Source: Curtobacterium sp. BH-2-1-1 (GTDB lineage Bacteria; Actinomycetota; Actinomycetes; Actinomycetales; Microbacteriaceae). From it: a stretch of DNA of 64,000 nucleotides. Where the stretch lies: NCBI RefSeq assembly GCF_001806325.1, contig NZ_CP017580.1, positions 2,852,001 through 2,916,000 of the forward strand. The letters are read 5' to 3'. Below, one piece after another: positions 3,070 to 60,229 of this stretch (its first letter is position 1; each line of letters begins with the position of its first letter). The position numbers were made by a program, and so were the translations under genes. The notes under the pieces are model-generated. The model did no database searches, was not told the DNA's origin, and saw nothing but the letters and a program-made list of their open reading frames with translations.

Positions 3070-4744
3070 CCCCGACATCGACTCCACCGACACCTCGGCG
3101 GACCCGCAGCGACCGTCGGACCACGTCGACGGATCCGGCCCGGAGACGGCAGCAGGCGGGTCGGGTGACTCCGGCGTCAACCAGCCGAAGCTCGGGGCCG
3201 TCGGGTACCTCCGCTTCTTCTGGCGGCAGCTCACGAGCATGCGCACGGCGCTGTTCCTCCTCATGCTGCTGGCACTCGCGGCGATCCCGGGGTCCCTGGT
3301 CCCGCAGCGCACGGCCGACCCGAACGGCGTCGTCCAGTACAAGGCCGACCACCCGCAGCTCTTCCCGGTCCTCGACAAGCTGCAGGTCTTCGACACCTAC
3401 ACGTCGGTGTGGTTCTCGGCGATCTACCTGCTGCTCTTCGTCTCCCTGATCGGCTGCATCGTCCCGCGCACGAAGCACCACTGGCAGGCGCTGCGCACCC
3501 GACCCCCGAAGACCCCGGTCCGCCTGAGCCGTCTGGCCGGCTACCGCTCGGTCGCCGTCGACGGCGAGGGCGTCACGCCGGAGCACGCCGTCACCCGCGC
3601 GATGGCGATCCTCAAGCGCTCCGGCTACCGCGTCGAACGCTTCGGCGACTCGGTGAGCGCCGAGCGCGGCTACCTGCGCGAGACCGGCAACCTGGTGTTC
3701 CATGCGGCGCTCGTGGGCGTGCTGCTCGCGGTCGGTGTCGGCGGCGGGTTCGGGTACACCGGTCAGCGGCTCCTCGTCGAGGGTCAGACGTTCTCGAACG
3801 TGCTCGGCTCGTACGACTCGTTCAACCCCGGTCGCTGGTTCCAGCAGAGCGACCTCAAGGGCTACAACTTCACGCTCGACAAGTTCGTCACCAAGTACGA
3901 GGAGCGGAACCTCGACGCCCTCGGCCAGGCGCTCGACTACTCGGCGACGGTCACAACGCAGGAGAAGGGCGGCTCCAAGCAGACGAGCCGACTCGGCGTC
4001 AACGACCCGGTGAGCGTCGGCGGCACCAACGTCTACCTCCTCGGCAACGGCTACGCGATGGACGTCACCGTGCGCGACGGCGACGGCAACGTGGCGTTCA
4101 AGGACACCGTGCCGTTCCTCCCCGAGGACGCGAACTACACGTCGACCGGCGTCATCAAGGTGCCGGACGCGCTGCCGGACCAGCTCGGCATGGTCGGGTT
4201 CTTCTACCCGACGGCGTCGAAGCTCTCGACCGGCGCGTACGCCAGCGCCTACCCGGACGACCAGAACCCGCTGCTGACCCTGCAGGTCTACACGGGTGAC
4301 CTCGGGCTCGACGACGGCGTCCCGCAGAGCGTCTACACGCTCGACACCAGCGGGCTGCAGCAGATCGCGGGCCGCCAGTCCAAGACCGCCAGCGTCGAGC
4401 TGAAGCCCGGGCAGACCAAGACGCTGCCGGACGGCGCCGGGTCGATCACGTTCGACGGGGTGAAGCGCTACGTCTCGCTCGACGTCCACCACGACCCGTC
4501 GCAGCTGTGGGTCGGCGGCTTCGCCGTGCTGTCCGTCCTCGGGCTCCTCACGTCGCTCTTCGTCCCGCGCCGTCGCGTCTGGGTGAAGGTCGTGCCGCGC
4601 CGCGACGGCAGCGCCGACGCCGAGCCGGGCTACGACCTCGAGTACGCGGGCCTCGCACGCGGCGAGGACCCGAACCTCGAACGGGCCGTGGCGGACATCG
4701 CCAAGCGCCACACGTCGGACCTCGGAGTTAGGATGCCCCAGTGA
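3053..4744 (+). CDS. resB: Cytochrome c biogenesis protein ResB
   Basis: A 563-residue membrane component of the System II haem-delivery and ligation complex with CcsB. There is an N-terminal hydrophilic stretch of about 60 residues, membrane segments near FLLMLLALAAIPGSLVPQ and IYLLLFVSLIGCIVPRTKHH, a third after an arginine-rich loop, a large extracytoplasmic domain (about residues 235-485), and a last membrane segment followed by RRRVWVKV. The start is the TTG at 3053; no ATG or GTG lies in frame before residue 63, which would already be at the first membrane segment, so TTG is the best choice. It overlaps ccdA by 17 bases and ccsB by four (GTGA). Confidence 0.9.
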   Translation: MSPQSDPDIDSTDTSADPQRPSDHVDGSGPETAAGGSGDSGVNQPKLGAVGYLRFFWRQLTSMRTALFLLMLLALAAIPGSLVPQRTADPNGVVQYKADHPQLFPVLDKLQVFDTYTSVWFSAIYLLLFVSLIGCIVPRTKHHWQALRTRPPKTPVRLSRLAGYRSVAVDGEGVTPEHAVTRAMAILKRSGYRVERFGDSVSAERGYLRETGNLVFHAALVGVLLAVGVGGGFGYTGQRLLVEGQTFSNVLGSYDSFNPGRWFQQSDLKGYNFTLDKFVTKYEERNLDALGQALDYSATVTTQEKGGSKQTSRLGVNDPVSVGGTNVYLLGNGYAMDVTVRDGDGNVAFKDTVPFLPEDANYTSTGVIKVPDALPDQLGMVGFFYPTASKLSTGAYASAYPDDQNPLLTLQVYTGDLGLDDGVPQSVYTLDTSGLQQIAGRQSKTASVELKPGQTKTLPDGAGSITFDGVKRYVSLDVHHDPSQLWVGGFAVLSVLGLLTSLFVPRRRVWVKVVPRRDGSADAEPGYDLEYAGLARGEDPNLERAVADIAKRHTSDLGVRMPQ

Positions 4745-5736
4745 ACGACATGACCACGAACCTCGCGACCTACTCGGTCGTGCTGACGTACTCCGCCATG
4801 GCGGTCTACGTCATCGCGTTCATCGCGTTCGCCCTCGACATGGCGAAGCGGGCCGGCAACGTGACGGCTGCGTCCGACGCCGCTGCGACGCCCGCCGCCG
4901 GCGCGGAGCGGACCGTCGCGACCGTCCAGGGCGGCACCGTCGTCCTCGAGCAGGTCGCCGTCACCGACGAACGAGCCGGGCGCCGCGGGACGAAGTTCGA
5001 GCGGGTCGGCATGGCGATGACGATCCTGGCGCTCGTGCTGCACGTCGCGTCCGTCGTCCTGCGCGGGATCGCGGCCGACCGCGTGCCGTGGGGCAACATG
5101 TTCGAGTTCTCGCTGACCGGCACGGCGCTGATCACCCTGATCTTCCTACTCGTGCAGTTCTGGCAGAACCTGAAGTTCCTCGGCGTCTTCATCACCGGCC
5201 TCACGATCATCCTGCTCGGCATCGCGACCGTGAACTACTGGGTGCCCGTCGTGCCGCTGCAGCCCGCGCTGCAGTCGTACTGGCTCGTCATCCACGTCTT
5301 CGTCGCCATCGCCGGCACGGGCTTCTTCGCCCTGGGTGCCGGACTCGCCGTGGCGCAGCTCGTGCAGACCTACCGCCAGGGTCGGACCGCCTCGGGCAAG
5401 CTCCGCTTCATGGAGACGCTGCCGGACGCCGACCGGCTCGAGGTCCTCACCTACCGCGTCCTGCTCGTCGGGTTCGTCCTCTGGACCTTCACGCTCATCG
5501 CCGGTGCGATCTGGGCCGAGCGCGCCTGGGGTCGCTACTGGGGGTGGGACACGAAGGAGGTCTGGACCTTCATCATCTGGGTGGTCTACGCCGGGTACAT
5601 CCACGCGCGTGCGACCCGCGGGTGGCGTGGCGCGCGGTCGTCGTGGCTGGCTCTCATCGGCTTCGCCGCGGTCATGTTCAACTTCTCGGTCGTGAACGTG
5701 TTCTTCAAGGGCCTGCACAGCTACTCCGGACTGTGA
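4741..5736 (+). CDS. ccsB: Cytochrome c biogenesis protein CcsB (haem-handling protein family)
   Basis: A 331-residue polytopic membrane protein that exports and presents haem to apocytochrome c together with ResB. The diagnostic tryptophan-rich WWD-type motif WGRYWGWDTKEVWTF lies at residues 263-277, and conserved histidines occur nearby (for example VIHVF and YIHAR). A hydrophilic loop of about 75 residues separates the first membrane segment from the rest. It starts at GTG 4741 inside the resB stop, and is the last gene of the operon. The transcript probably ends at the 42-bp perfect palindrome 42 bases downstream. Confidence 0.92.
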   Translation: MNDMTTNLATYSVVLTYSAMAVYVIAFIAFALDMAKRAGNVTAASDAAATPAAGAERTVATVQGGTVVLEQVAVTDERAGRRGTKFERVGMAMTILALVLHVASVVLRGIAADRVPWGNMFEFSLTGTALITLIFLLVQFWQNLKFLGVFITGLTIILLGIATVNYWVPVVPLQPALQSYWLVIHVFVAIAGTGFFALGAGLAVAQLVQTYRQGRTASGKLRFMETLPDADRLEVLTYRVLLVGFVLWTFTLIAGAIWAERAWGRYWGWDTKEVWTFIIWVVYAGYIHARATRGWRGARSSWLALIGFAAVMFNFSVVNVFFKGLHSYSGL

Positions 5737-5778
5737 GCCGGACGGGTCGCTGATGCGACCCTGGTCGCGACCACCACC

Positions 5779-5820
5779 GGACGGGAGGCGCGGTGCCAGC
5801 TGGCACCGCGCCTCCCGTCC
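5779..5820. repeat. Palindromic intergenic element, GACGGGAGGCGCGG family, copy 1
   Basis: A perfect 42-base palindrome with no loop (centre AGCT). The left arm begins GGACGGGAGGCGCGGTGC and the right arm is its exact complement. It lies 42 bases after ccsB, facing the end of menC. GGTCGCGACC, itself a palindrome, occurs just before it at 5763-5772. Three further copies are at 39627, 48966 and 55041. It could end transcription from both sides, although no T-run follows. A recombination or protein-binding role is equally possible. Confidence 0.85.
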
Positions 5821-5986
5821 GTCGTCGGCGCGAGTCCGAGGCCCGTGCCCCGGTGCGAGTCCAGGCGCGAGCGCGAGGTCGCGCAATCCGTCGCCCGGCG
5901 CGCGTCGGAACGACCGAACGTGCGACCTCGGCGAACGTGAGCGGCAGGTCGTGCGACCGGGCCGACCCGGGCGGCCGGCCGGGCGG

Positions 5987-6964
5987 TCAGCCGGCGAGGA
6001 GCGCGTGCACCCGCTCGAGCCGCGCGAGCCACCACGCGGCACGCTCCGGCGACGCCGCGTTCCGCTCGAGCAGGTCCCGGTCGACCTCGACCCGCCGCAC
6101 CGGCACCCGCCCGTCCACCGGCAGCAGCGGCGCCGCCGACACGTCCGACGTGAACATCGCCGCGGTGCCGAGCCCCGCGGCGTACCCGGGCGAAATCGCC
6201 TCGGCCGCGAGGAACGCTCCCATCCCCAACCCGACCGACGTGTCGAGCGCACTCGACACCACGCAGGGGAGCCCGGCGTCGGCGACGACCGCACGCGCGG
6301 CGGTGATGCCGCCGAGGGGCTGCGCCTTCACGACGAGGACGTCGGCGGCACCGGCCCTGGCGACGGCGAGCGGGTCCGAGGCCTTGCGGACGCTCTCGTC
6401 CGCGGCGATCGGCACGCCGAGCCCAGCGATCCGCTGCCGGAGCTCGGCGAGTTCCGGCACCGTGCGGCACGGCTGCTCGGCGTACTGCAGGTCGAACGGG
6501 GCGAGGCGCTCGAGGGCCTCTGCGGCGGAGTCGACGCTCCAGAGCCCGTTCGCGTCCACGCGGACCGCGGCGGAGGGGCCCATAACCCGTCGGACCTCGG
6601 CGACGCGGGCCACGTCGTCGTCGATCGTGGTGCCGGGTTCGGCGACCTTCACCTTGGCGGTCGTGCAGCCCGGGTACCGGGCGAGGAGGTCCGCGACGCC
6701 GTCCGGAGCGATCGCCGGCACGGTGGCGTTCACGGGGACGCTGTCCGCGGCGGGCTCGTGCGTCGTCCAGCCGAAGTCGACCGCGGCCCGGAGCCATGCG
6801 GCGGCCTCGGCGTCGTCGTACTCGACGAACGGGGAGAACTCGGTCCACCCGGCCGGACCGCGCAGGACGAGGGCCTCGCGCACCGTGATGCCGCGGAACC
6901 GCACTCGCATGGGCAGTGTCACCACGTGCGCGTCGGAGAGGAGGTCGTCGAGGTCGGGGAGCAC
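5987..6964 (-). CDS. menC: o-Succinylbenzoate synthase
   Basis: Enolase-superfamily enzyme that dehydrates SHCHC to o-succinylbenzoate in menaquinone synthesis; cytoplasmic. About 325 residues. Catalytic features in order: the KxK pair at Lys104 and Lys106 (TTAKVKV), metal ligands Asp137 (RVDANG), Glu163 (YAEQP) and Asp189 (AADES), and the second catalytic lysine at about 213 (VVKAQPLGG). The GTG at 6964 is chosen because family members start with a short segment before a VTLPMRVRFRG-like strand. A weak -10-like GATGAT lies 6 nt upstream, suggesting a leaderless start. An ATG at 6910 is the alternative. It is transcribed toward ccsB, opposite to the other men genes. Confidence 0.9.
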   Translation of the reverse strand: MLPDLDDLLSDAHVVTLPMRVRFRGITVREALVLRGPAGWTEFSPFVEYDDAEAAAWLRAAVDFGWTTHEPAADSVPVNATVPAIAPDGVADLLARYPGCTTAKVKVAEPGTTIDDDVARVAEVRRVMGPSAAVRVDANGLWSVDSAAEALERLAPFDLQYAEQPCRTVPELAELRQRIAGLGVPIAADESVRKASDPLAVARAGAADVLVVKAQPLGGITAARAVVADAGLPCVVSSALDTSVGLGMGAFLAAEAISPGYAAGLGTAAMFTSDVSAAPLLPVDGRVPVRRVEVDRDLLERNAASPERAAWWLARLERVHALLAG

Positions 6965-7044
6965 CTGGCCATCATCCCAGGAGCACCCAGGGCACCCCAC
7001 GGTTCCTCGGAGCGGACCGCCAGGGCAGCGCACTAGTCTGCATC

Positions 7045-7100
7045 GGTCGGCCACGGTCGGCACCCCAGCACGAACGTCGGCCACGGTCGGCACCCCAGCA
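7045..7100. repeat. Tandem pair of 26-bp direct repeats, 30-bp period
   Basis: The unit GTCGGCCACGGTCGGCACCC plus CCAGCA occurs at about 7046-7070 and again at 7076-7100. An AGCACCAGCACCAGCACC tract follows directly and leads into the ribosome-binding site of the next gene. The repeats lie in the region between the divergent menC and the 7133 gene. Confidence 0.8.
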
Positions 7101-7132
7101 CCAGCACCAGCACCGAGGACGAGGGAGGACCT

Positions 7133-7654
7133 GTGGCGCCGGAACCGCAGCAGCGCGCGTCGCAGCGATCCGCAGCACCTCCCTCGGCGCGTGCGCAGGC
7201 CCCGGGCGCGCGTGCGCAGTCTCCGAGTGCGCGTGCGCAGGCCCCCGGTCGCGACACCGGCGAGTTCGCCCGGCTCATGCAGCGGAACACCGTCGACGTC
7301 CGGCAGGAAGCCCAGAAGGGGCGCAAGAAGCGCAACCCGGTGGTCGGCAAGATCGCCCTGGGGCTCGCGGTCGTCTCCGCCGCGATCGACGCGAGCGCCT
7401 TCGCCGTCTTCATGGGCGGCGACACCGACTTCGCGTTCGGCATCTGCTTCGTGGTGGTCTTCCTCACGCTCATCGCCGCGGTGCTCGGGTTCGTCGCCGC
7501 GGTGGGGTCGTTCGGCCGCTGGTACGGCGCAGTCGGCGTGGTCGTGGCGTTCTTCGCGAACCCGGTGATCCTCATCGTGCTGCTCGTGATCGTCGCCCCC
7601 GAACTGCTGACCGACATGGGTGGTTCGGCCGCGACGGACGGCGCGGGGCTGTAG
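7133..7654 (+). CDS. Hypothetical membrane protein with repetitive N-terminal tail
   Basis: A 173-residue protein of unknown function. Residues 1-60 are a hydrophilic, probably cytoplasmic tail rich in Ala, Gln, Pro and Arg, with an imperfect repeat ARAQAPG / ARAQSPS / ARAQAPG. A basic stretch (QKGRKKRNP) is followed by three hydrophobic segments (about 72-90, 97-120 and 124-155). GTG 7133 is preceded by a good purine-rich site (GAGGGAGGA), unlike the many leaderless genes nearby. It stands alone between menC and menB. No family was recognised with confidence; comparable small membrane proteins are often found near men genes in Microbacteriaceae. Confidence 0.75.
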   Translation: MAPEPQQRASQRSAAPPSARAQAPGARAQSPSARAQAPGRDTGEFARLMQRNTVDVRQEAQKGRKKRNPVVGKIALGLAVVSAAIDASAFAVFMGGDTDFAFGICFVVVFLTLIAAVLGFVAAVGSFGRWYGAVGVVVAFFANPVILIVLLVIVAPELLTDMGGSAATDGAGL

Positions 7655-53099: not shown

Positions 53100-53123
53100 A
53101 TGGATCGGGGTGACGCGTCGTGA
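53100..53123 (+). CDS. Possible 7-codon leaderless leader peptide overlapping the ABC exporter start
   Basis: ATG GAT CGG GGT GAC GCG TCG TGA. The ATG lies 6 nt after a -10-like TAGGTT (53088-53093), the leaderless spacing used by many genes here, and the TGA overlaps the GTG start of the ABC exporter (GTGA at 53120-53123). Ribosomes finishing this mini-ORF would be placed on the exporter start. No unusual amino acid bias is seen, so it may only serve coupling. Confidence 0.4.
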   Translation: MDRGDAS

Positions 53124-55018
53124 GCATGCACGGCGGGATGCGCGGCGGCGGCGGCGGCGGTGGTGGCGGTCGCGGTGGCGGTCGGATCTCCAGTGGCGAC
53201 TTCGAAGCGCAGAAGGCCGCCAACGCCGAGGCGCCCAAGATCCCGAACCTCCTCAAGCGCATCGCCGGGCTGTTCGTGCCGCACCGGAACGCGATCATCC
53301 TGACCGTCGTACTGGTGCTGATCGGCGCCGCGATCTCCGTCGTCCCACCGCTCCTCACCCAGCGGGCGTTCGACGAGGGGCTCTTCCCGAAGGGCGGCGG
53401 CGGGCCCGACCTGCCCGTGCTGTACGTCCTCGTCGGCGCCATGGTGGTGCTCTGGATCGCGAGCGCGGGGATCGGCGTCTGGCAGACCTACCTCACCGCG
53501 ACGGTCGGCAACAAGGTCATGGGCGCGATGCGCATGCGGCTGTTCGGACACCTCCAGCGCATGGAGCTCGCGTTCTTCACCCGCACGAAGACCGGTGTCA
53601 TCCAGTCCCGCCTGCAGAACGACGTCGGTGGCGTCGCGAGCGTGCTCAACAACACGATCTCGTCGATCCTCGGCAACACGGTGACGGTGATCGCCGCCGT
53701 CGTCGCGATGCTGCTCCTCAGCTGGCAGATGACCCTCGTCGCGGTCGTCCTGCTGCCCCTCCTCGTGATCGCGCAGCGACGGGTCGGCCAGGTCCGCGCC
53801 AAGATCGCCGCGCAGACACAGGAGTCGCTGTCGGACATGACCGCGATCACGCAGGAGGCACTGAGCGTCTCCGGCATCCTGCTCGCGAAGAGCTTCAACC
53901 AGCAGCGTGCGGAGACGCAGCGGTACGGCAACGAGAACCGCAACCAGATCCGCCTGCAGGTCCGTCAGCAGATGTCCGGTCAGTGGTTCTTCGCGATCGT
54001 GTCGATCTTCCTGTCGATCATCCCGGCGATCATCTACGTCGTCGCCGCGTACCTCATCATCGGCGACGTGCCGATCACGGCCGGCACGATCGTGGCCTTC
54101 ACCACCGTGCAGTCCCGGCTGCTGTTCCCGACCGTCGGCCTGCTCCGGGTCGTCCTCGACCTGCAGACCTCCGGCGCGCTGTTCGCCCGCATCTTCGAGT
54201 ACCTCGACCTCCAGCCCGCCATCACGGACCCGCCCACGGCGAAGCCCGTCGACGAGTCCCGGGTGGGGCACGTCGCCTTCGACGACGTGACGTTCACCTA
54301 CCCGGACGGCGAGGCGGACAAGCCGACCCTCCGCGGGGTGTCGTTCGAGCTCCAGCCCGGTCAGTTCGCCGCGTTCGTGGGGCCGTCGGGTGCGGGGAAG
54401 ACGACCGTGTCGTACCTCGTGCCCCGGCTGTACGAGGCGACCGCGGGCTCGGTCCGGTTCGCCGGACAGGACGTCCGCGAGCTGGCGCACGAGGACCTCA
54501 TGCGCCACGTCGGCATCGTCAGCCAGGAGACCTACCTCTTCCACGCCACCATCGGCGACAACCTGCGCTACGCCAAGCCGGACGCGACCGACGACGAGAT
54601 CGAGCAGGCCGCGCGCGCGGCGAACATCCACGAGACGATCGCCTCGTTCCCGGACAGCTACGAGACGGTCGTCGGGGAGCGCGGCTACCGGCTGTCCGGC
54701 GGCGAGAAGCAGCGGATCGCGATCGCGCGGGTGCTGCTCAAGGACCCGCCGGTGCTCGTGCTCGACGAGGCGACGAGCGCCCTCGACTCGATCTCCGAGC
54801 GTGTCGTGCAGACGGCCCTCGACAACGCCGCGGCGGGCCGGACGACGATCTCGATCGCGCACCGGCTCTCGACGATCCGCGACGCCGACGTCATCTTCGT
54901 GCTCGACCACGGGCGGATCGTCGAGCAGGGTACGCACGAGGAGCTCCTCGAGCGGGACGGCACCTACGCGATGCTGCACCACCAGCAGAACGCCCCCGCC
55001 GACGCCGTCGGCAGCTGA
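53120..55018 (+). CDS. ABC exporter, fused membrane and ATPase domains (MsbA/LmrA type)
   Basis: A 632-residue half-transporter that would act as a homodimer. A Gly/Arg-rich N-terminus (GGMRGGGGGGGGGRGGGR) precedes six membrane segments (about 58-345) with the coupling-helix region QRMELAFFTRTKTGVIQSRLQND. In the ATPase domain, Walker A is GPSGAGKTT, Q-loop SQETYLFHATIGDN, signature LSGGEKQR, Walker B PVLVLDEATSALD and H-loop IAHRLSTI. All motifs are intact. GTG 53120 overlaps the putative mini-ORF stop; ATG 53126 is an alternative. The 3' end is followed 22 bases later by palindrome copy 4, separating it from the cyclase-like gene. Confidence 0.92.
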   Translation: MSMHGGMRGGGGGGGGGRGGGRISSGDFEAQKAANAEAPKIPNLLKRIAGLFVPHRNAIILTVVLVLIGAAISVVPPLLTQRAFDEGLFPKGGGGPDLPVLYVLVGAMVVLWIASAGIGVWQTYLTATVGNKVMGAMRMRLFGHLQRMELAFFTRTKTGVIQSRLQNDVGGVASVLNNTISSILGNTVTVIAAVVAMLLLSWQMTLVAVVLLPLLVIAQRRVGQVRAKIAAQTQESLSDMTAITQEALSVSGILLAKSFNQQRAETQRYGNENRNQIRLQVRQQMSGQWFFAIVSIFLSIIPAIIYVVAAYLIIGDVPITAGTIVAFTTVQSRLLFPTVGLLRVVLDLQTSGALFARIFEYLDLQPAITDPPTAKPVDESRVGHVAFDDVTFTYPDGEADKPTLRGVSFELQPGQFAAFVGPSGAGKTTVSYLVPRLYEATAGSVRFAGQDVRELAHEDLMRHVGIVSQETYLFHATIGDNLRYAKPDATDDEIEQAARAANIHETIASFPDSYETVVGERGYRLSGGEKQRIAIARVLLKDPPVLVLDEATSALDSISERVVQTALDNAAAGRTTISIAHRLSTIRDADVIFVLDHGRIVEQGTHEELLERDGTYAMLHHQQNAPADAVGS

Positions 55019-55198: not shown

Positions 55199-57424
55199 GT
55201 GACAGCTGTCCCACCGACGTCCGACCCCATCCCGCCGACGGGCCCGATCGCCCCCGATGCACCACGCGTCGTCGAGGACGCGCCCCGCAAGAAGGGGAAG
55301 TTCCGCGCGTTCCTCACGAGCGGCTCCCTCGACATCCAGTCCAAGCTCCTCGTGATGCTCCTCGCGGTGAGCATCGTGGCGGCGCTGGTCGTGGGTGTCG
55401 TCGGCTACCTCAACGGCCGGAGCTCGCTCGAGGCCGCGGCGTTCAACCAGGTGACCTCGTTGCGCGAGGCGAGGATCACCGAACTGCAGCGCTCGTTCGG
55501 CCAGTTCACCCAGATGGTCGTCGCGCAGACCCGCAACGAGAGCGTCATCGGCGCGACGAAGGCCTTCGAGTCCGGGTGGGACGACCTGCAGTCGCGGCCG
55601 GTGTCCGACGACGACCACACGAAGGTCGAGGACTGGTACCGGGACTCCTTCGTCCCGCAGCTCGACGACCGCAACGGCGGCACCGCCAACCCGGACCAGT
55701 TCGCGCCGACCGAGGACCCGCAGGCCTACCTGCAGGCGCGGTACACGGCGCCGTTCACCGACTACGACAAGGCCATCGACCAGGACGACGCCGGGGACGG
55801 CAGTGCGTGGTCGGCGGCGCACGCCGAGTACCAGCCGTACTTCAAGCAGGCGGTCGAGGCCGCCGGGTACGAGGACCTCCTGCTCATGGACACCGACGGG
55901 GACGTCGTGTACTCGGCGTACTCCGGCGCGGACCTCGGCACGAACCTCGAGAGCGGGCCCTACCGCGACTCGAACCTCACGACCGGGTACCAGCAGGCAC
56001 TGCAGCTGACGAGCTCGGACGACTTCGTGGTGACGGACTTCGCGCGGTACGTGCCGAGCCTCAACGTCCCGACGCTCTGGGTGATGTCGCCGGTGGCCGA
56101 GGACGGCAAGATCATCGGGGTGATGGCCGTCCAGGTGCCGGTCGACCTCATCACGCAGGTCATGACGGGCAACGAGCAGTGGAAGGACGACGGCCTCGGG
56201 GACACCGGGGAGTCGTACCTCATCGGTGCCGACCACCTCATGCGGTCGTACCCGCGCCAGCTCATCGAGCACCCGAAGCAGTACCAGCGCGACGTCGTCG
56301 CTGCCGGGACGGCGCCCTCGACGGCGGCCCGCCAGGTCGCGGTGAAGGGCTCCGTGCTCCTGCAGGAGGTGAACACCACCCCGGTGACACGGGCGCTGCA
56401 GGGCAAGTCCGGCACCGTGATCTCGACCGACTACCGCGGGAAGGAAGTACTCGCGGCGTACGCGCCGCTCGAGGTCGACGGGCTCCGCTGGGTCGTCGTG
56501 GCGCAGATGGACACCGCCGAGGCGTTCGCCCCGGTGAACGACTTCGCCCGCAACATCGGCCTCGCGCTCGTCGGCATCATCGTCCTCGTCAGCCTGCTGT
56601 CGCTGCTGCTGGCCCAGGTGTTCGTCCGGCCGATCCGGCGGTTGCAGACCGCGGTGAACCGGGTCTCGTCCGGCGACCTCGGCGTCGAGGTGCAGACGAA
56701 GGCCGGCGACGAGATCGGCGACCTCGGACTCGCGTTCAACGACATGAGCCGCAGCCTCCAGGTGAAGCAGGACCTGCTCGACGAGCAGCGACGGCAGAAC
56801 GACACCCTGCTGCTGACGCTCATGCCGGAGGAGGTCGCCCGTCGCTACAAGCAGGGCGACGAGACGATCGCGGCCGACCACCAGGACGTCGCCGTCGTCT
56901 ACGCGGACATCATCGGGTTCGACGAGTTCGCCGCCGGCCTCACCGCCGAGGAGTCCCTGTCCCTCGTCAACGACGTCTGGCGCTCCCTCGACGAGGCGGC
57001 CACCCGCCACGGCGTCGAGCGGGTGCGCACGACCCGGAGCGGGTACCTCGCCAGCTGCGGCCTGAGCGTGCCGCGCGTGGACAACGTCCGCCGCGTCGTC
57101 GACTGGGCGGAGGAGGCGCAGGGCGTGCTCGAGCGATTCAACGCGCAGCACGGGTCGAAGATCGGGTTGCGCGCCGGCATCGACACCGGCCAGGTCACGA
57201 GCGGGCTCGTCGGGCGCTCGAGCATCGTCTACGACATGTGGGGCGACGCCGTCAGCCTGGCGTTGCGGGTGCAGGGGATCGCCCCGGCGCCGGGGGTGTA
57301 CGCGACGCAGCGCGTGGTCGACAAGCTCGGCGACCGCGGGGGCGTGCAGGACGTCGGCGAGGTGCAGACGCAGGCCGGACCGCAGCGGGTCTGGAAGCTC
57401 GAGCGCACCGGAGCGGCGTCGTGA
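55199..57424 (+). CDS. Receptor-type class III nucleotide cyclase homologue with degenerate active site
   Basis: A 741-residue membrane receptor. TM1 is about 49-70 (LLVMLLAVSIVAALVVGVVG); a large extracytoplasmic dCache-like sensor (about 75-455) includes YEDLLLMDTDGDVVYSAYSG and VMSPVAEDGKIIGVMAVQVP. TM2 (about 456-478) and HAMP (VRPIRRLQTAVNRVSSGDLG) follow, then a class III cyclase homology domain (about 560-735). Metal Asp570 (YADIIGF) and adenine-selecting-type Asp679 (YDMWGD) are present, but the second metal Asp is Ser614 (RTTRSGY), the purine-contact Lys is Arg610, and the transition-state Asn is Ser686, with Arg690 kept. Homodimer cyclase activity is therefore doubtful. GTG 55199; the stop overlaps the channel gene. 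Confidence 0.87.
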   Translation: MTAVPPTSDPIPPTGPIAPDAPRVVEDAPRKKGKFRAFLTSGSLDIQSKLLVMLLAVSIVAALVVGVVGYLNGRSSLEAAAFNQVTSLREARITELQRSFGQFTQMVVAQTRNESVIGATKAFESGWDDLQSRPVSDDDHTKVEDWYRDSFVPQLDDRNGGTANPDQFAPTEDPQAYLQARYTAPFTDYDKAIDQDDAGDGSAWSAAHAEYQPYFKQAVEAAGYEDLLLMDTDGDVVYSAYSGADLGTNLESGPYRDSNLTTGYQQALQLTSSDDFVVTDFARYVPSLNVPTLWVMSPVAEDGKIIGVMAVQVPVDLITQVMTGNEQWKDDGLGDTGESYLIGADHLMRSYPRQLIEHPKQYQRDVVAAGTAPSTAARQVAVKGSVLLQEVNTTPVTRALQGKSGTVISTDYRGKEVLAAYAPLEVDGLRWVVVAQMDTAEAFAPVNDFARNIGLALVGIIVLVSLLSLLLAQVFVRPIRRLQTAVNRVSSGDLGVEVQTKAGDEIGDLGLAFNDMSRSLQVKQDLLDEQRRQNDTLLLTLMPEEVARRYKQGDETIAADHQDVAVVYADIIGFDEFAAGLTAEESLSLVNDVWRSLDEAATRHGVERVRTTRSGYLASCGLSVPRVDNVRRVVDWAEEAQGVLERFNAQHGSKIGLRAGIDTGQVTSGLVGRSSIVYDMWGDAVSLALRVQGIAPAPGVYATQRVVDKLGDRGGVQDVGEVQTQAGPQRVWKLERTGAAS

Positions 57425-58854
57425 CCGCGTTCTGGGAGCAGCCGTGGTTCTGGCCGGCGATCAGCGTCATCGTCGGCCTGCCGCTGCTGCTGCTCGTCCT
57501 GACCGAGCTGCAGTCGAACCTCGAGCGGCGAGGCAACTCGCTGCACAAGGTGGTCGGACTGCTGCGGAACGCCGTGGTGCCGATCATCGCGATCCTCGTC
57601 CTGTCCGTCCAGGTCACCGACGCGGTCGACCCGGGCAAGCCCGTGGTGAACCAGATCATCGGCACGGTGCTCGGGTTCCTCGTGATCGTGTTCGTCCTGA
57701 ACGGGCTGAACATCGTCCTGTTCACGAACGCCCGGAAGGGCACCTGGCGCGAGAAGATCCCGTCGATCTTCGTGGACATCGCCCGCATCGTGCTCATCGC
57801 GCTCGGGCTGGCGCTGGTGTTCAAGATCGTCTGGGGCGCGGACGTCGGCGGGATCTTCACCGCGCTCGGTGTCGGCTCGCTCGTCATCGGCCTCGCGCTG
57901 CAGTCCGCCGTCGGTCCGGTGATCGCCGGGCTGTTCCTGCTGTTCGAGCAGCCGTTCCGGCTGGGGGACTGGCTCGACGCCGGTGGCGTGCGCGGCCGGG
58001 TGGTCGAGGTGAACTGGCGGTCGGTGCACATCGACACGGGCGCCGGGATCCTCATCATGCCGAACTCCTCGTTGGCGGGGGCGTCGTTCACGAACCTCAG
58101 CCGGACAGGAGGCACGTTCCCGGTCGCCACGGACGTCACGTTCACGACGGACGACCCTCCGGCAGCGGTGGTCGCCCTGCTGCAGCGGGTCGCGTCCGGC
58201 CTGCCCCAGCGGTACCCCGGCACGCAGCCGGTGGCGGTGCCGACCGGCGGATCGTCGTACACCGTGTCCTTCGAGGTCCGCGGACCGTCGCAGGAGGGCG
58301 ATGCGCTCGCCCAGTTCCGGATGTGGCTCTGGTACGCCGCCCGGCGCGCAGGGCTCGGCCTCGACGGCGACACGACCGACGACTTCGTCACTGACGAGCG
58401 GCGGGACGCCGCCCTGGCGTCGATCGCGCCCACGCTGTACCTGACGGGCGACGACGGGGCCGCGCTGGCACCGCTCGTCCGGCTCGAGCGGTACGCCGCC
58501 GGCGAGACGATCGTCACGGCCGGCACGGTGCCCGACGCGGTCCGGTTCGTCCTGTCCGGCAGCGTCGACCTGCGCGTCCCGTTCGAGGACGCCGAGTTGC
58601 CGGCGACCCGCGTCGAGACCGGCGACTACCTCGGGCAGACGGCGTTGACCCGGGAGGCGCTGCTCACCACCGCCGTCGCGCTCACCGAGGTCGCGGTGCT
58701 GGTCGTGCCCGCCACCGCGCTCGACCAGATCGTGCGCGGCACGCCGGCGCTCGCCCGGGACATGGGGGAGGTCATCGACCGCCGCCGGCAGGAGGTCTCC
58801 GCGGCGGTGTCCGCCCACGTCGCATCCCAGCGGAAGACGGTGTCCGCCGCCTAG
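57421..58854 (+). CDS. MscS-family channel with C-terminal cyclic-nucleotide-binding-like domain
   Basis: A 477-residue channel-like protein. Four or five membrane segments end in the MscS pore-helix and beta-domain block GVGSLVIGLALQSAVGPVIAG and FEQPFRLGDWLDAGGVRGRVVEVNWRSVHIDTGAGILIMPNSSL. Residues about 345-465 form a CNMP_binding-like domain (LERYAAGETIVTAGTVPDAVRFVLSGSVDLRV). In its phosphate cassette GDYLGQTALTREALLTTAVAL, the Glu expected after G is Gln406, and no Arg is found at the expected position (Leu415/Thr416). It starts in the cyclase-like stop (GTGA), so the two proteins are made together. From memory, M. tuberculosis Rv2435c/Rv2434c have the same order and similar lengths; not checked here. 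Confidence 0.87.
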   Translation: MTAFWEQPWFWPAISVIVGLPLLLLVLTELQSNLERRGNSLHKVVGLLRNAVVPIIAILVLSVQVTDAVDPGKPVVNQIIGTVLGFLVIVFVLNGLNIVLFTNARKGTWREKIPSIFVDIARIVLIALGLALVFKIVWGADVGGIFTALGVGSLVIGLALQSAVGPVIAGLFLLFEQPFRLGDWLDAGGVRGRVVEVNWRSVHIDTGAGILIMPNSSLAGASFTNLSRTGGTFPVATDVTFTTDDPPAAVVALLQRVASGLPQRYPGTQPVAVPTGGSSYTVSFEVRGPSQEGDALAQFRMWLWYAARRAGLGLDGDTTDDFVTDERRDAALASIAPTLYLTGDDGAALAPLVRLERYAAGETIVTAGTVPDAVRFVLSGSVDLRVPFEDAELPATRVETGDYLGQTALTREALLTTAVALTEVAVLVVPATALDQIVRGTPALARDMGEVIDRRRQEVSAAVSAHVASQRKTVSAA

Positions 58855-58864
58855 ACTCGACCGC

Positions 58865-60229
58865 GTGCGTTACGCGAACTCCGTGGTCGACCTCGTCGGC
58901 GACACCCCGCTCGTCAAGCTCAACCGGGTGACCGAGGGGGTGCGCGCGACCGTCCTCGTGAAGGTCGAGTACCTCAACCCCGGTGGGTCGTCGAAGGACC
59001 GGATCGCCACCAGGATCATCGACGCGGCCGAGGCCTCCGGCGACCTGGGCCCCGGCGGCACCATCGTCGAGCCGACCTCCGGCAACACCGGTGTCGGCCT
59101 CGCGCTCGTCGCCCAGCAGCGCGGCTACCGCTGCGTGTTCGTCCTGCCCGACAAGGTCGGCGAGGACAAGCGGAACGTGCTCACCGCGTACGGCGCCGAG
59201 ATCGTCGTCACGCCGACGGCCGTCCCGCCCGAGCACCCGGAGTCGTACTACTCGGTGTCCGACCGGCTGGTGCGCGAGATCCCCGGCGCCTACAAGCCGA
59301 ACCAGTACGCCAACCCGAACGGCCCGCGCAGCCACTACGAGACCACCGGTCCGGAGATCTGGCGCGACACCGAGCAGCGCATCACGCACTTCGTCGCGGG
59401 TGTCGGCACCGGCGGCACCATCTCCGGCACCGGACGCTTCCTGAAGGAGGCCTCGGACGGCCGTGTCCGCATCGTCGGCGCCGACCCCGAGGGCTCCGTC
59501 TACTCGGGCGGCACCGGTCGCCCGTACCTGGTCGAGGGCGTCGGCGAGGACTTCTGGCCGACCGCGTACGACCCCGGGGTCCCCGACGAGATCATCGCCG
59601 TGTCGGACGCCGACTCGTTTGCGATGACCCGTCGGCTCGCCCGTGAAGAGGGCCTGCTCGTCGGTGGCTCGAGCGGCATGGCGGTCGTCGCCGCGCTCCG
59701 CGCCGCCCGCGACCTCACCGAGGACGACGTGGTCGTGGTGCTCCTGCCGGACGGCGGCCGCGGCTACCTCGGCAAGATCTTCAACGACCGGTGGATGCGC
59801 TCCTACGGCTTCGCCGAGACCGACGACGAGCGCACCGTGGGGTCGCTCATCGCGGGCAAGGACGGCCGGCTGCCCGACCTCGTCCACGCCCACCCGGCGG
59901 ACACCGTGCGCGAGGTCGTCGACATCATGACGAAGTACGGCGTCTCGCAGATGCCCGTGCTCAGCGCCGAACCGCCCGTCGTCATCGGCGAGGTCGTCGG
60001 CGCGGTGGCGGAGAAGGACCTGCTCGAGCAGGTCTTCACCGGCGCCGCGAAGATGACGGACGCGCTGTCCGGGTTCGTGGGCGACCCGCTCCCGCTCATC
60101 GGCGTCGGCGAGTCGGTCTCGTCGGCGCGCCGTGCGCTCGAGTCGGCGGACGCCCTGCTCGTCGTCGAGGACGGCAAGCCCGTCACCGTGCTGACCCGCC
60201 ACGACCTGCTCGCCTACCTGTCCGAGTGA
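58865..60229 (+). CDS. cbs: Cystathionine beta-synthase
   Basis: PLP enzyme that condenses homocysteine with serine (or O-acetylserine) to cystathionine. It has 454 residues. The catalytic domain has LVGDTPLVKLNRV, PLP-lysine Lys44 in NPGGSSKDRIATRII, the substrate loop PTSGNTGVGLAL, VAGVGTGGTISGTGRFLKE and GGSSGMAVVAAL. Two C-terminal CBS domains follow (about 340-452: VREVVDIMTKYGVSQMPVL, LLVVEDGKPVTVLTRHDLLAYL), the classic regulatory pair. GTG 58865 is 7 nt after TAGACT (58852-58857), so it is leaderless and transcribed separately from the channel gene 10 bases upstream. It is paired with the next gene in transsulfuration. Confidence 0.94.
   Translation: MRYANSVVDLVGDTPLVKLNRVTEGVRATVLVKVEYLNPGGSSKDRIATRIIDAAEASGDLGPGGTIVEPTSGNTGVGLALVAQQRGYRCVFVLPDKVGEDKRNVLTAYGAEIVVTPTAVPPEHPESYYSVSDRLVREIPGAYKPNQYANPNGPRSHYETTGPEIWRDTEQRITHFVAGVGTGGTISGTGRFLKEASDGRVRIVGADPEGSVYSGGTGRPYLVEGVGEDFWPTAYDPGVPDEIIAVSDADSFAMTRRLAREEGLLVGGSSGMAVVAALRAARDLTEDDVVVVLLPDGGRGYLGKIFNDRWMRSYGFAETDDERTVGSLIAGKDGRLPDLVHAHPADTVREVVDIMTKYGVSQMPVLSAEPPVVIGEVVGAVAEKDLLEQVFTGAAKMTDALSGFVGDPLPLIGVGESVSSARRALESADALLVVEDGKPVTVLTRHDLLAYLSE

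What the first reader, a model, noticed from the sequence alone, without database searches (positions are those of the whole stretch)
55199..58854. Cyclase-like receptor coupled to an MscS channel, with both the cyclase site and the nucleotide-binding cassette degenerate
The two genes overlap in a GTGA. The receptor has a dCache-like sensor, HAMP and class III cyclase domain, but lacks the second metal Asp (Ser614), the purine-contact Lys (Arg610) and the transition-state Asn (Ser686). The channel's CNBD-like domain has Gln406 in place of the cassette Glu and no Arg at the expected position (Leu415/Thr416). Parallel loss on the producing and receiving side suggests the pair co-evolved to a different signal: direct protein contact, another ligand, or a conformational link from an outside ligand to an ion channel. 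I recall the same order in M. tuberculosis Rv2435c-Rv2434c.
Basis: partly seen in the sequence, partly recalled or inferred. Interest (0 to 1): 0.82.

Follow-up and report, generated by a model that had tools for sequence, protein, structure and literature searches.

The report
Pseudo-cyclase receptor paired with MscS channel
Two overlapping bacterial genes encode a sensor that looks like a cAMP-making enzyme but lacks catalytic residues, and a pressure-type ion channel whose cAMP-binding part lacks key binding residues; wherever the channel was found the sensor gene sat beside it, so the sensor may control the channel without cAMP.

Summary
The receptor (55199-57424) and channel (57421-58854) overlap by four bases. 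In 136 non-redundant pairs from Microbacteriaceae and mycobacteria, the cyclase Lys is absent in 136, the second metal Asp in 132 and the cassette Glu in 136; the cassette Arg is absent at its possible positions (414-416) in 131. A canonical mycobacterial cyclase and two CRPs in the same alignment keep theirs. The receptor lies directly upstream of the channel in 182 of 182 scorable loci, 141 of them distinct. Of 60 Curtobacterium genomes, the 20 with the pair have no other class III cyclase or CNBD hit. At the home site the pair is present or absent as a unit. The degenerate domains are under purifying selection. So a canonical cAMP relay is unlikely. The likeliest mechanism, inferred only, is an external ligand moving the pseudo-cyclase, which gates the channel by contact. 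Co-evolution tests gave nothing above controls, so another ligand or unusual chemistry remains possible. A 2004 survey names the M. tuberculosis genes; its body could not be read.

The parts
55199..57424 (+). Receptor gene, 741 aa, GTG start: N-terminal TM, extracellular dCache, TM, HAMP, pseudo-cyclase
   Evidence: AlphaFold model mean pLDDT 83.5
55850..56503 (+). dCache_1 match (residues 218-435) inside the extracellular sensor
   Evidence: Pfam 9.6e-12, 45.4 bits against cut-off 45
56606..56761 (+). HAMP domain (470-521), followed by the signalling helix up to about residue 557
   Evidence: Pfam 1.5e-14; median dN/dS 0.117 for 455-557
56876..57376 (+). Class III cyclase-fold domain (560-726), degenerate
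   Evidence: Pfam 7.9e-26; Foldseek hits to Rv1625c and mammalian cyclase domains; family clade nearest to the canonical mycobacterial cyclase L158
57026..57028 (+). Arg610 in place of the purine-contact Lys
   Evidence: R 133, H 3, K 0 of 136 pairs
57038..57040 (+). Ser614 in place of the second metal Asp
   Evidence: D in 4 of 136 pairs
57254..57256 (+). Ser686 in place of the transition-state Asn
   Evidence: N 68, S 48, D 11, T 8, V 1 of 136
57421..58854 (+). Channel gene, 477 aa, GTG start overlapping the receptor stop (GTGA): five predicted long N-terminal helices, MscS pore and beta domain, middle domain, C-terminal CNBD
   Evidence: AlphaFold mean pLDDT 86.2, closest solved folds MscK, MscS and YnaI
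57841..58110 (+). Pore helix and MscS beta domain (141-230)
   Evidence: Pfam PF00924 1.6e-18 over 167-228; median dN/dS 0.082
58486..58734 (+). Cyclic-nucleotide-binding-like domain (356-438), degenerate
   Evidence: Pfam 5.9e-12; median dN/dS 0.285 for 346-460
58636..58638 (+). Gln406 in place of the cassette Glu
   Evidence: E in 0 of 136 pairs; E in 2 of 241 homologous channels
58663..58668 (+). Leu415-Thr416, where the phosphate-binding Arg should be
   Evidence: R at 414 in 0, 415 in 5, 416 in 0 of 136 pairs; R at the neighbouring 417 in 19
58648..58653 (+). Thr410-Arg411, nearly invariant cassette-loop residues (LTR[E/Q])
   Evidence: T410 241 of 241, R411 238 of 241 channels; a similar LTRE occurs in the SpIH channel CNBD aligned

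Best explanation
A two-gene receptor-channel unit. An extracellular ligand is sensed by the dCache domain (inferred). The signal crosses the membrane through HAMP and moves the cyclase-fold domain, which in this family of proteins works as a dimer (recalled). That domain no longer makes a cyclic nucleotide (strongly suggested by the missing residues, not assayed). It acts as a protein adaptor that touches the CNBD-like domains under the MscS pore and biases the pore open or shut, or changes its tension threshold (inferred). The CNBD serves as a docking and gating ring, not a cNMP receptor. The pair is an accessory unit, present or absent as a whole.
For: Receptor directly upstream of channel in 182 of 182 scorable loci (141 distinct), 66 with the same -3 spacing as the window, measured from the model's first position. 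No pair of 136 has the canonical residues: K610 0, D614 4, E406 0, R in 414-416 5, with positive controls. The 20 pair-carrying Curtobacterium genomes of 60 have no other PF00211 or PF00027 hit at E 1e-3. Empty sites: an ABC exporter lies directly next to the downstream gene in 14 pair-free genomes, one with a 77-residue channel relic. Both degenerate domains are under purifying selection: median dN/dS 0.167 for the cyclase domain and 0.285 for the CNBD. Of 186 loci, the only ones failing the two-domain coverage cut were three with broken frames and one at a contig edge.
Against: No direct evidence of contact. The coupling analysis (136 pairs, effective number about 78-90) put top inter-protein pairs about where chance would: cyclase-CNBD 18 of the top 100 against 18.3 expected, linker-CNBD 8 against 3.5. 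The cyclase-CNBD partial correlation of 0.30 fell to 0.24 (0.01-0.42) in a 30-locus subset with two neighbour genes added, no larger than the correlation between those genes themselves (0.23). A dimeric receptor and a heptameric channel (both recalled) do not match in symmetry. Asp679 (136 of 136) and an acid at 570 (134 of 136) are kept, which suggests that part of a nucleotide pocket survives. Arg occurs somewhere in 413-417 in 34 of 136, so a shifted phosphate contact is possible in a minority.
Confidence: 0.45

Rival explanations
1. The pseudo-cyclase binds a nucleotide (ATP, GTP or similar) without converting it, and this occupancy, together with the outside ligand, sets the channel; the CNBD itself is contacted by protein or is empty. 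The pair would integrate energy state and an external cue.
For: The base-contact Asp679 is kept in 136 of 136 and an acid at metal site A in 134 of 136, while metal site B is lost in 132 of 136. The canonical Gly before metal site B is replaced by a basic residue in most pairs (R 95, H 23, K 3 of 136), and 610 is R in 133 of 136: a pattern that could hold a triphosphate with no second metal.
Against: Pocket residues 686 and 690 vary, and Glu replaces Asp570 in 30 of 136. No binding data.
Confidence: 0.2
2. The receptor still makes an unusual nucleotide signal (another base or linkage) and the CNBD has changed to fit it, as in Pycsar with cCMP/cUMP (recalled).
For: The CNBD matches Pycsar TIR effectors in PADLOC (PycTIR 3.5e-8) and the solved PycTIR. 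Cyclase plus membrane effector is a Pycsar-like arrangement.
Against: PycC itself matches only at E 0.0035. The second metal Asp is missing in 132 of 136. Position 406 is Leu, Val, Ile or Met in 55 of 136, which cannot hydrogen-bond a ribose.
Confidence: 0.12
3. The CNBD senses a nucleoside or other small metabolite not made by the receptor, as the trypanosome PKA regulatory subunit senses inosine; the receptor acts separately or additively.
For: Trypanosome cAMP-independent PKA subunits (6h4g, 6flo, 6ftf) are the first CNBD-type hits in the fold search, ranks 41-48, with weak superposition; they too lack the phosphate Arg (PMC10959531, passages read).
Against: Those sites keep the cassette Glu (E309) and use a second Glu (E311) for ribose; this family has Glu at 406 in 0 of 136 and Ala 92, Thr 20, Ser 16, Val 6, Met 1, Gly 1 at the second position, 408.
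Confidence: 0.12
4. A canonical relay: the receptor makes cAMP or cGMP at a low rate and the channel is a bCNG-type channel gated by it.
For: Both folds are intact and annotated so; reported bCNG channels share the MscS plus CNBD layout (recalled; titles only seen). Arg lies somewhere in 413-417 in 34 of 136 channels.
Against: No member of 136 has the full canonical set on either side. In the 20 pair-carrying Curtobacterium genomes no other class III cyclase or CNBD hit exists.
Confidence: 0.06

Closest known systems
Rv2435c-Rv2434c of Mycobacterium tuberculosis (orthologous type; not examined directly)
   Same: Print describes Rv2435c as Cache-containing (PMC4822843, passage) and mammalian-type class III cyclase (PMC3961136, passage); both genes are named in Shenoy 2004 (word counts only). 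Mycobacterial relatives have the same order and the same degenerate motifs.
   Different: A mycobacterial genome examined (G442) has 11 cyclase and 6 CNBD matches, its pair included; the 20 pair-carrying Curtobacterium genomes have only the pair's own.
bCNG channels (MscS channels with a C-terminal CNBD; Caldwell 2010, reference title seen only)
   Same: MscS pore and beta domain plus C-terminal CNBD.
   Different: Cassette Glu absent, Arg absent or shifted; adjacent to a pseudo-cyclase receptor gene.
Class IIIa adenylyl cyclases (Rv1625c type; mammalian C1/C2)
   Same: Fold and sequence family; nearest branch is the canonical mycobacterial cyclase L158, itself on a long branch.
   Different: Purine Lys lost in all 136, second metal Asp in 132.
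KCNH/EAG channel CNB homology domain (recalled; 3ukn is a weak hit)
   Same: A CNBD in a channel that does not bind cNMP and is regulated by protein contact (recalled).
   Different: Different channel class; the contact is with a domain of the same channel, not a separate receptor (recalled).
Pycsar
   Same: Class III cyclase-like protein plus a CNBD-bearing membrane effector.
   Different: Cyclase matches PycC weakly (E 0.0035) and lacks catalytic residues; the effector is an MscS channel.

Membership tests
Active class III nucleotide cyclase | Class III catalytic fold | tested here: met
Active class III nucleotide cyclase | Two metal-binding Asp residues | tested here: not met
   570 D/E in 134 of 136; 614 D in 4 of 136. 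In the window: D570, S614
Active class III nucleotide cyclase | Substrate-base Lys (or a known guanylyl-cyclase replacement) with transition-state Asn and Arg | tested here: not met
   Lys 0 of 136; Asn686 68 of 136; Arg690 86 of 136. In the window: R610, S686, R690
Active class III nucleotide cyclase | Measured cyclase activity | not testable with these tools
   Needs an assay
bCNG channel | MscS pore and beta domain with C-terminal CNBD | tested here: met
bCNG channel | cNMP-binding cassette with Glu and Arg | tested here: not met
   Glu 0 of 136; Arg in 414-416 in 5 of 136, in 413-417 in 34. In the window neither is present
bCNG channel | Gating by cyclic nucleotides | not testable with these tools
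   Needs electrophysiology
Pycsar | PycC-type cyclase with intact catalytic site | tested here: not met
   PADLOC PycC 0.0035; second metal Asp missing
Nucleoside-binding CNB (trypanosome PKAR) | Cassette Glu plus second Glu contacting ribose | tested here: not met
   (paper passages) against positions 406 and 408
Rv2435c-Rv2434c type pair | Same gene order in M. tuberculosis itself | not tested
   Only other mycobacteria were identified by name

The most novel reading that the evidence does not exclude
A bacterial ligand-gated channel made of two proteins: an outside-facing Cache receptor whose dead cyclase domain grips the dead cyclic-nucleotide domain of an MscS channel and gates it directly, i.e. 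a former second-messenger relay turned into a protein-to-protein linkage.
Probability: 0.35. Interest if true: 0.85.

Novelty: new variant of a known kind. Interest (0 to 1): 0.6.

Why it matters
Pseudo-enzymes that keep a signalling job are well known for kinases and c-di-GMP proteins (recalled); a pseudo-cyclase tied one-to-one to an ion channel with an equally degenerate receptor domain would be a clean bacterial case of a messenger system replaced by contact. It would make an MscS-family channel ligand-controlled, not only tension-controlled. Genomes annotated as having a cAMP cyclase and a cAMP-binding channel may have neither; source names of that kind are common among the relatives listed. 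Curtobacterium is a convenient place to test it, because the 20 pair-carrying genomes examined show no other class III cyclase or CNBD hit.

Tried and rejected
Residue coupling (mean-field DCA on 136 concatenated pairs): too few effective sequences; 47 of the top 100 scores were inter-protein against 48% expected by column counts. Mirror-tree on 96 pairs: cyclase-CNBD r 0.763, but cyclase-TM is 0.761; partial r 0.30 (0.21-0.39), the largest inter-protein value in only 388 of 1000 bootstraps; with two neighbour genes as controls (30 loci used of 37 with both), 0.24 (0.01-0.42) against 0.23 for the two controls with each other. Counted as no evidence for contact.

Rosetta-stone fusion: L112 (Leifsonia aquatica) reads as one ORF through both genes, but the receptor's end lies in a shifted frame there, so I do not count it as a real fusion; it was left out of the alignments onward. 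It is among the 182 pairs, where it gives the outlying gap value of -1421.

Shifted supply of the cassette Arg: Arg411 is nearly invariant (238 of 241) but lies several residues before the expected place, and a similar LTRE occurs in the SpIH channel, whose own Arg pair follows separately (alignment); without coordinates I could not measure it. Arg at 413 or 417 occurs in some members (R 13 and 19 of 136); not in the window.

Rows dropped: L091, L095 and L013 (broken frames, taken as found) and L121 (contig edge); L048 (the window's own place) and L112. Of 181 rows, window included, 136 remained after removing near-copies at 98.5% identity. The 182 loci include the window's own place and repeats; 141 have distinct ends.

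Other cyclase classes were not searched in the own genome; the 2004 survey's abstract says only class III was found in the actinobacteria then sequenced.
Full report
What is there. The receptor gene is 55199-57424 and the channel gene 57421-58854, both on the plus strand, sharing GTGA. Pfam places dCache_1, HAMP and Guanylate_cyc in the receptor and MS_channel_2nd and cNMP_binding in the channel. AlphaFold models are good (mean pLDDT 83.5 and 86.2); Foldseek gives MscK, MscS and YnaI for the channel and Rv1625c, mammalian and soluble guanylyl cyclase domains for the receptor. The host is a 3.8 Mb single-contig genome, by its closest proteins a Curtobacterium. It has three PF00924 channels in all.

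The degeneracy is family-wide. In 136 non-redundant pairs, window included: Lys at 610 in 0; Asp at 614 in 4; Asp/Glu at 570 in 134; Asp at 679 in 136; Asn at 686 in 68; Arg at 690 in 86; Glu at channel 406 in 0. The cassette Arg, whose column depends on gap placement, is found at 414-416 in 5 of 136, but Arg lies somewhere in 413-417 in 34, mostly at 417 or 413. In 241 channel proteins (the window's own and the 120 listed from each of two searches with 2125 and 2539 hits), Glu at 406 occurs in 2. In 121 receptors (the window's own and 120 listed of 1967), 610 is Arg in 121 and 614 is Asp in 4. The same alignment puts canonical residues where expected in a mycobacterial cyclase (L158) and two CRPs (L175, L179); two other CNBD proteins in it, L176 and L188, also lack the cassette residues, so degenerate CNBDs are not unique to this family. 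The family's cyclase domains form one side of a branch (SH-aLRT 91) next to L158 (83; L158 has a long branch, quick tree, 8 controls). The loss therefore lies at or before the family's base, and ongoing co-variation of the losses cannot be tested within it.

The two genes go together. Of 186 loci examined, 182 were scorable (coverage cut on both proteins), and in 182 the receptor is directly upstream on the same strand; the gap, measured to the model's first position, is -9 to +33 bases in 179, with 66 at the window's own -3, two at -48, and L112 reading as one frame. The 182 include the window's own place and repeats; 141 have distinct ends. Three of the other four have broken frames and one lies at a contig edge. 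In the class sample of 394 genomes, full-length channels occur in 30, 9 of the window's family and 21 of one other, f11 (few candidates per genome were scored), which the named mycobacterial loci and the proteins suggest is Mycobacteriaceae. They occur in 59 of 349 genomes of the window's family, 23 of 85 genera, and 17 of 201 genomes of f11. Records named Microlunatus and Specibacter show members elsewhere.

No other machinery in Curtobacterium. Of 60 genomes, 21 have a PF00211 match and 22 a PF00027 match (20 over cut-off). Twenty have both, adjacent, and no other match (two PF00211 pieces in G026, a genome of 65% completeness, lie side by side). G006 has only a partial PF00211 elsewhere; G024 and G034 only sub-cut-off PF00027. 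Of three further genomes of the family, G348 and G227 have only the pair's cyclase but other CNBD matches (one and three), and G448 has two pairs plus one other cyclase frame and no other CNBD match; the mycobacterial G442 has 11 cyclase and 6 CNBD matches, its pair included. So the closed-system argument holds for Curtobacterium, not for the whole family.

Home site. In 77 named loci an ABC exporter lies upstream in 42 and a cystathionine-synthase-like gene downstream in 40; apart from one weak 32% hit in Mycobacterium these are not mycobacterial, and Microbacterium (11 loci) has neither. Of 30 Curtobacterium loci fetched by the downstream gene (59 genomes have it), 15 have the channel in front of it (in one, G003, in broken frames), 14 have the exporter directly in front, and one is at a contig edge. 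One of the 14 (G024) keeps a 77-residue stretch of the channel's end at 91% identity, a relic of loss. No intact gene was seen without the other, apart from the broken-frame and contig-edge records; the partial cyclase of G006 was not examined further.

Selection. Among 13 sequences (the window, 11 named Curtobacterium and one labelled only Microbacteriaceae), median pairwise dN/dS is 0.082 (pore/beta), 0.117 (HAMP and linker), 0.167 (cyclase domain), 0.221 (channel middle), 0.230 (dCache), 0.285 (CNBD), 0.308 (channel TM) and 0.452 (receptor N-terminus). Pairs are not independent and the ranges of cyclase domain and sensor overlap, but both degenerate domains lie far below 1, so they appear to have a job.

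How it may work. Contact gating is my leading reading because both ends of the messenger relay are gone while the domains and their linkage are kept. It is inferred. Two attempts to find co-evolution gave nothing above controls (the uncontrolled value is). A partly kept purine pocket (Asp679, acid at 570, Arg610, mostly a basic residue at 613) keeps the non-catalytic nucleotide rival alive. The trypanosome precedent (PMC10959531, start of abstract and passages) shows that a CNB can change ligand, but with ribose-contacting Glu residues that this family lacks.

What is known. Rv2435c appears in print as a Cache-containing cyclase (PMC4822843, passage) and as mammalian-type (PMC3961136, passage, which also says five annotated M. 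tuberculosis cyclases had not been shown active, naming Rv1359). Twelve papers name one of the two M. tuberculosis genes (listing). Shenoy 2004 (PMC2447327) names Rv2434c 3 times, Rv2435c 10 times and 'inactive cyclase domain' once; only its abstract and reference list are held, so it may already report part of this. Searches for pseudo-cyclases, for MscS plus CNBD plus cyclase, for Cache receptors with MscS gating, and for Pycsar with mechanosensitive channels listed no title or abstract start about such a pair, apart from PMC2447327. They cover open-licence PubMed Central papers only.

Noticed in passing
window 53120-55018 and 58865-60229: An ABC exporter and a cystathionine-beta-synthase-like gene flank the pair in many other Microbacteriaceae loci (42 and 40 of 77 named loci), but not in the 11 Microbacterium loci.
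   Followed up: partly
L112 (Leifsonia aquatica DSM 20146) 3700-7404: Receptor and channel read as one open frame through a shifted junction; assembly error, real frameshift or true fusion not decided.
   Followed up: no
L258 (genome G024): A 77-residue relic of the channel C-terminus remains at the otherwise empty site between the exporter and the synthase gene.
   Followed up: partly
L091, L095, L013: Curtobacterium loci with broken channel frames (in L091 the receptor is broken too); described only.
   Followed up: no
L176 (genome G227) and L188 (genome G442): Other CNBDs, in frames of 638 and 617 residues, also lack the cassette Glu and Arg.
   Followed up: no
genome G448, contig 2: Two separate copies of the pair lie about 86 kb apart in one genome.
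   Followed up: no
G006 contig 2, 141849-142265: A partial class III cyclase match in a Curtobacterium genome without the pair, on another contig than the home site.
   Followed up: no
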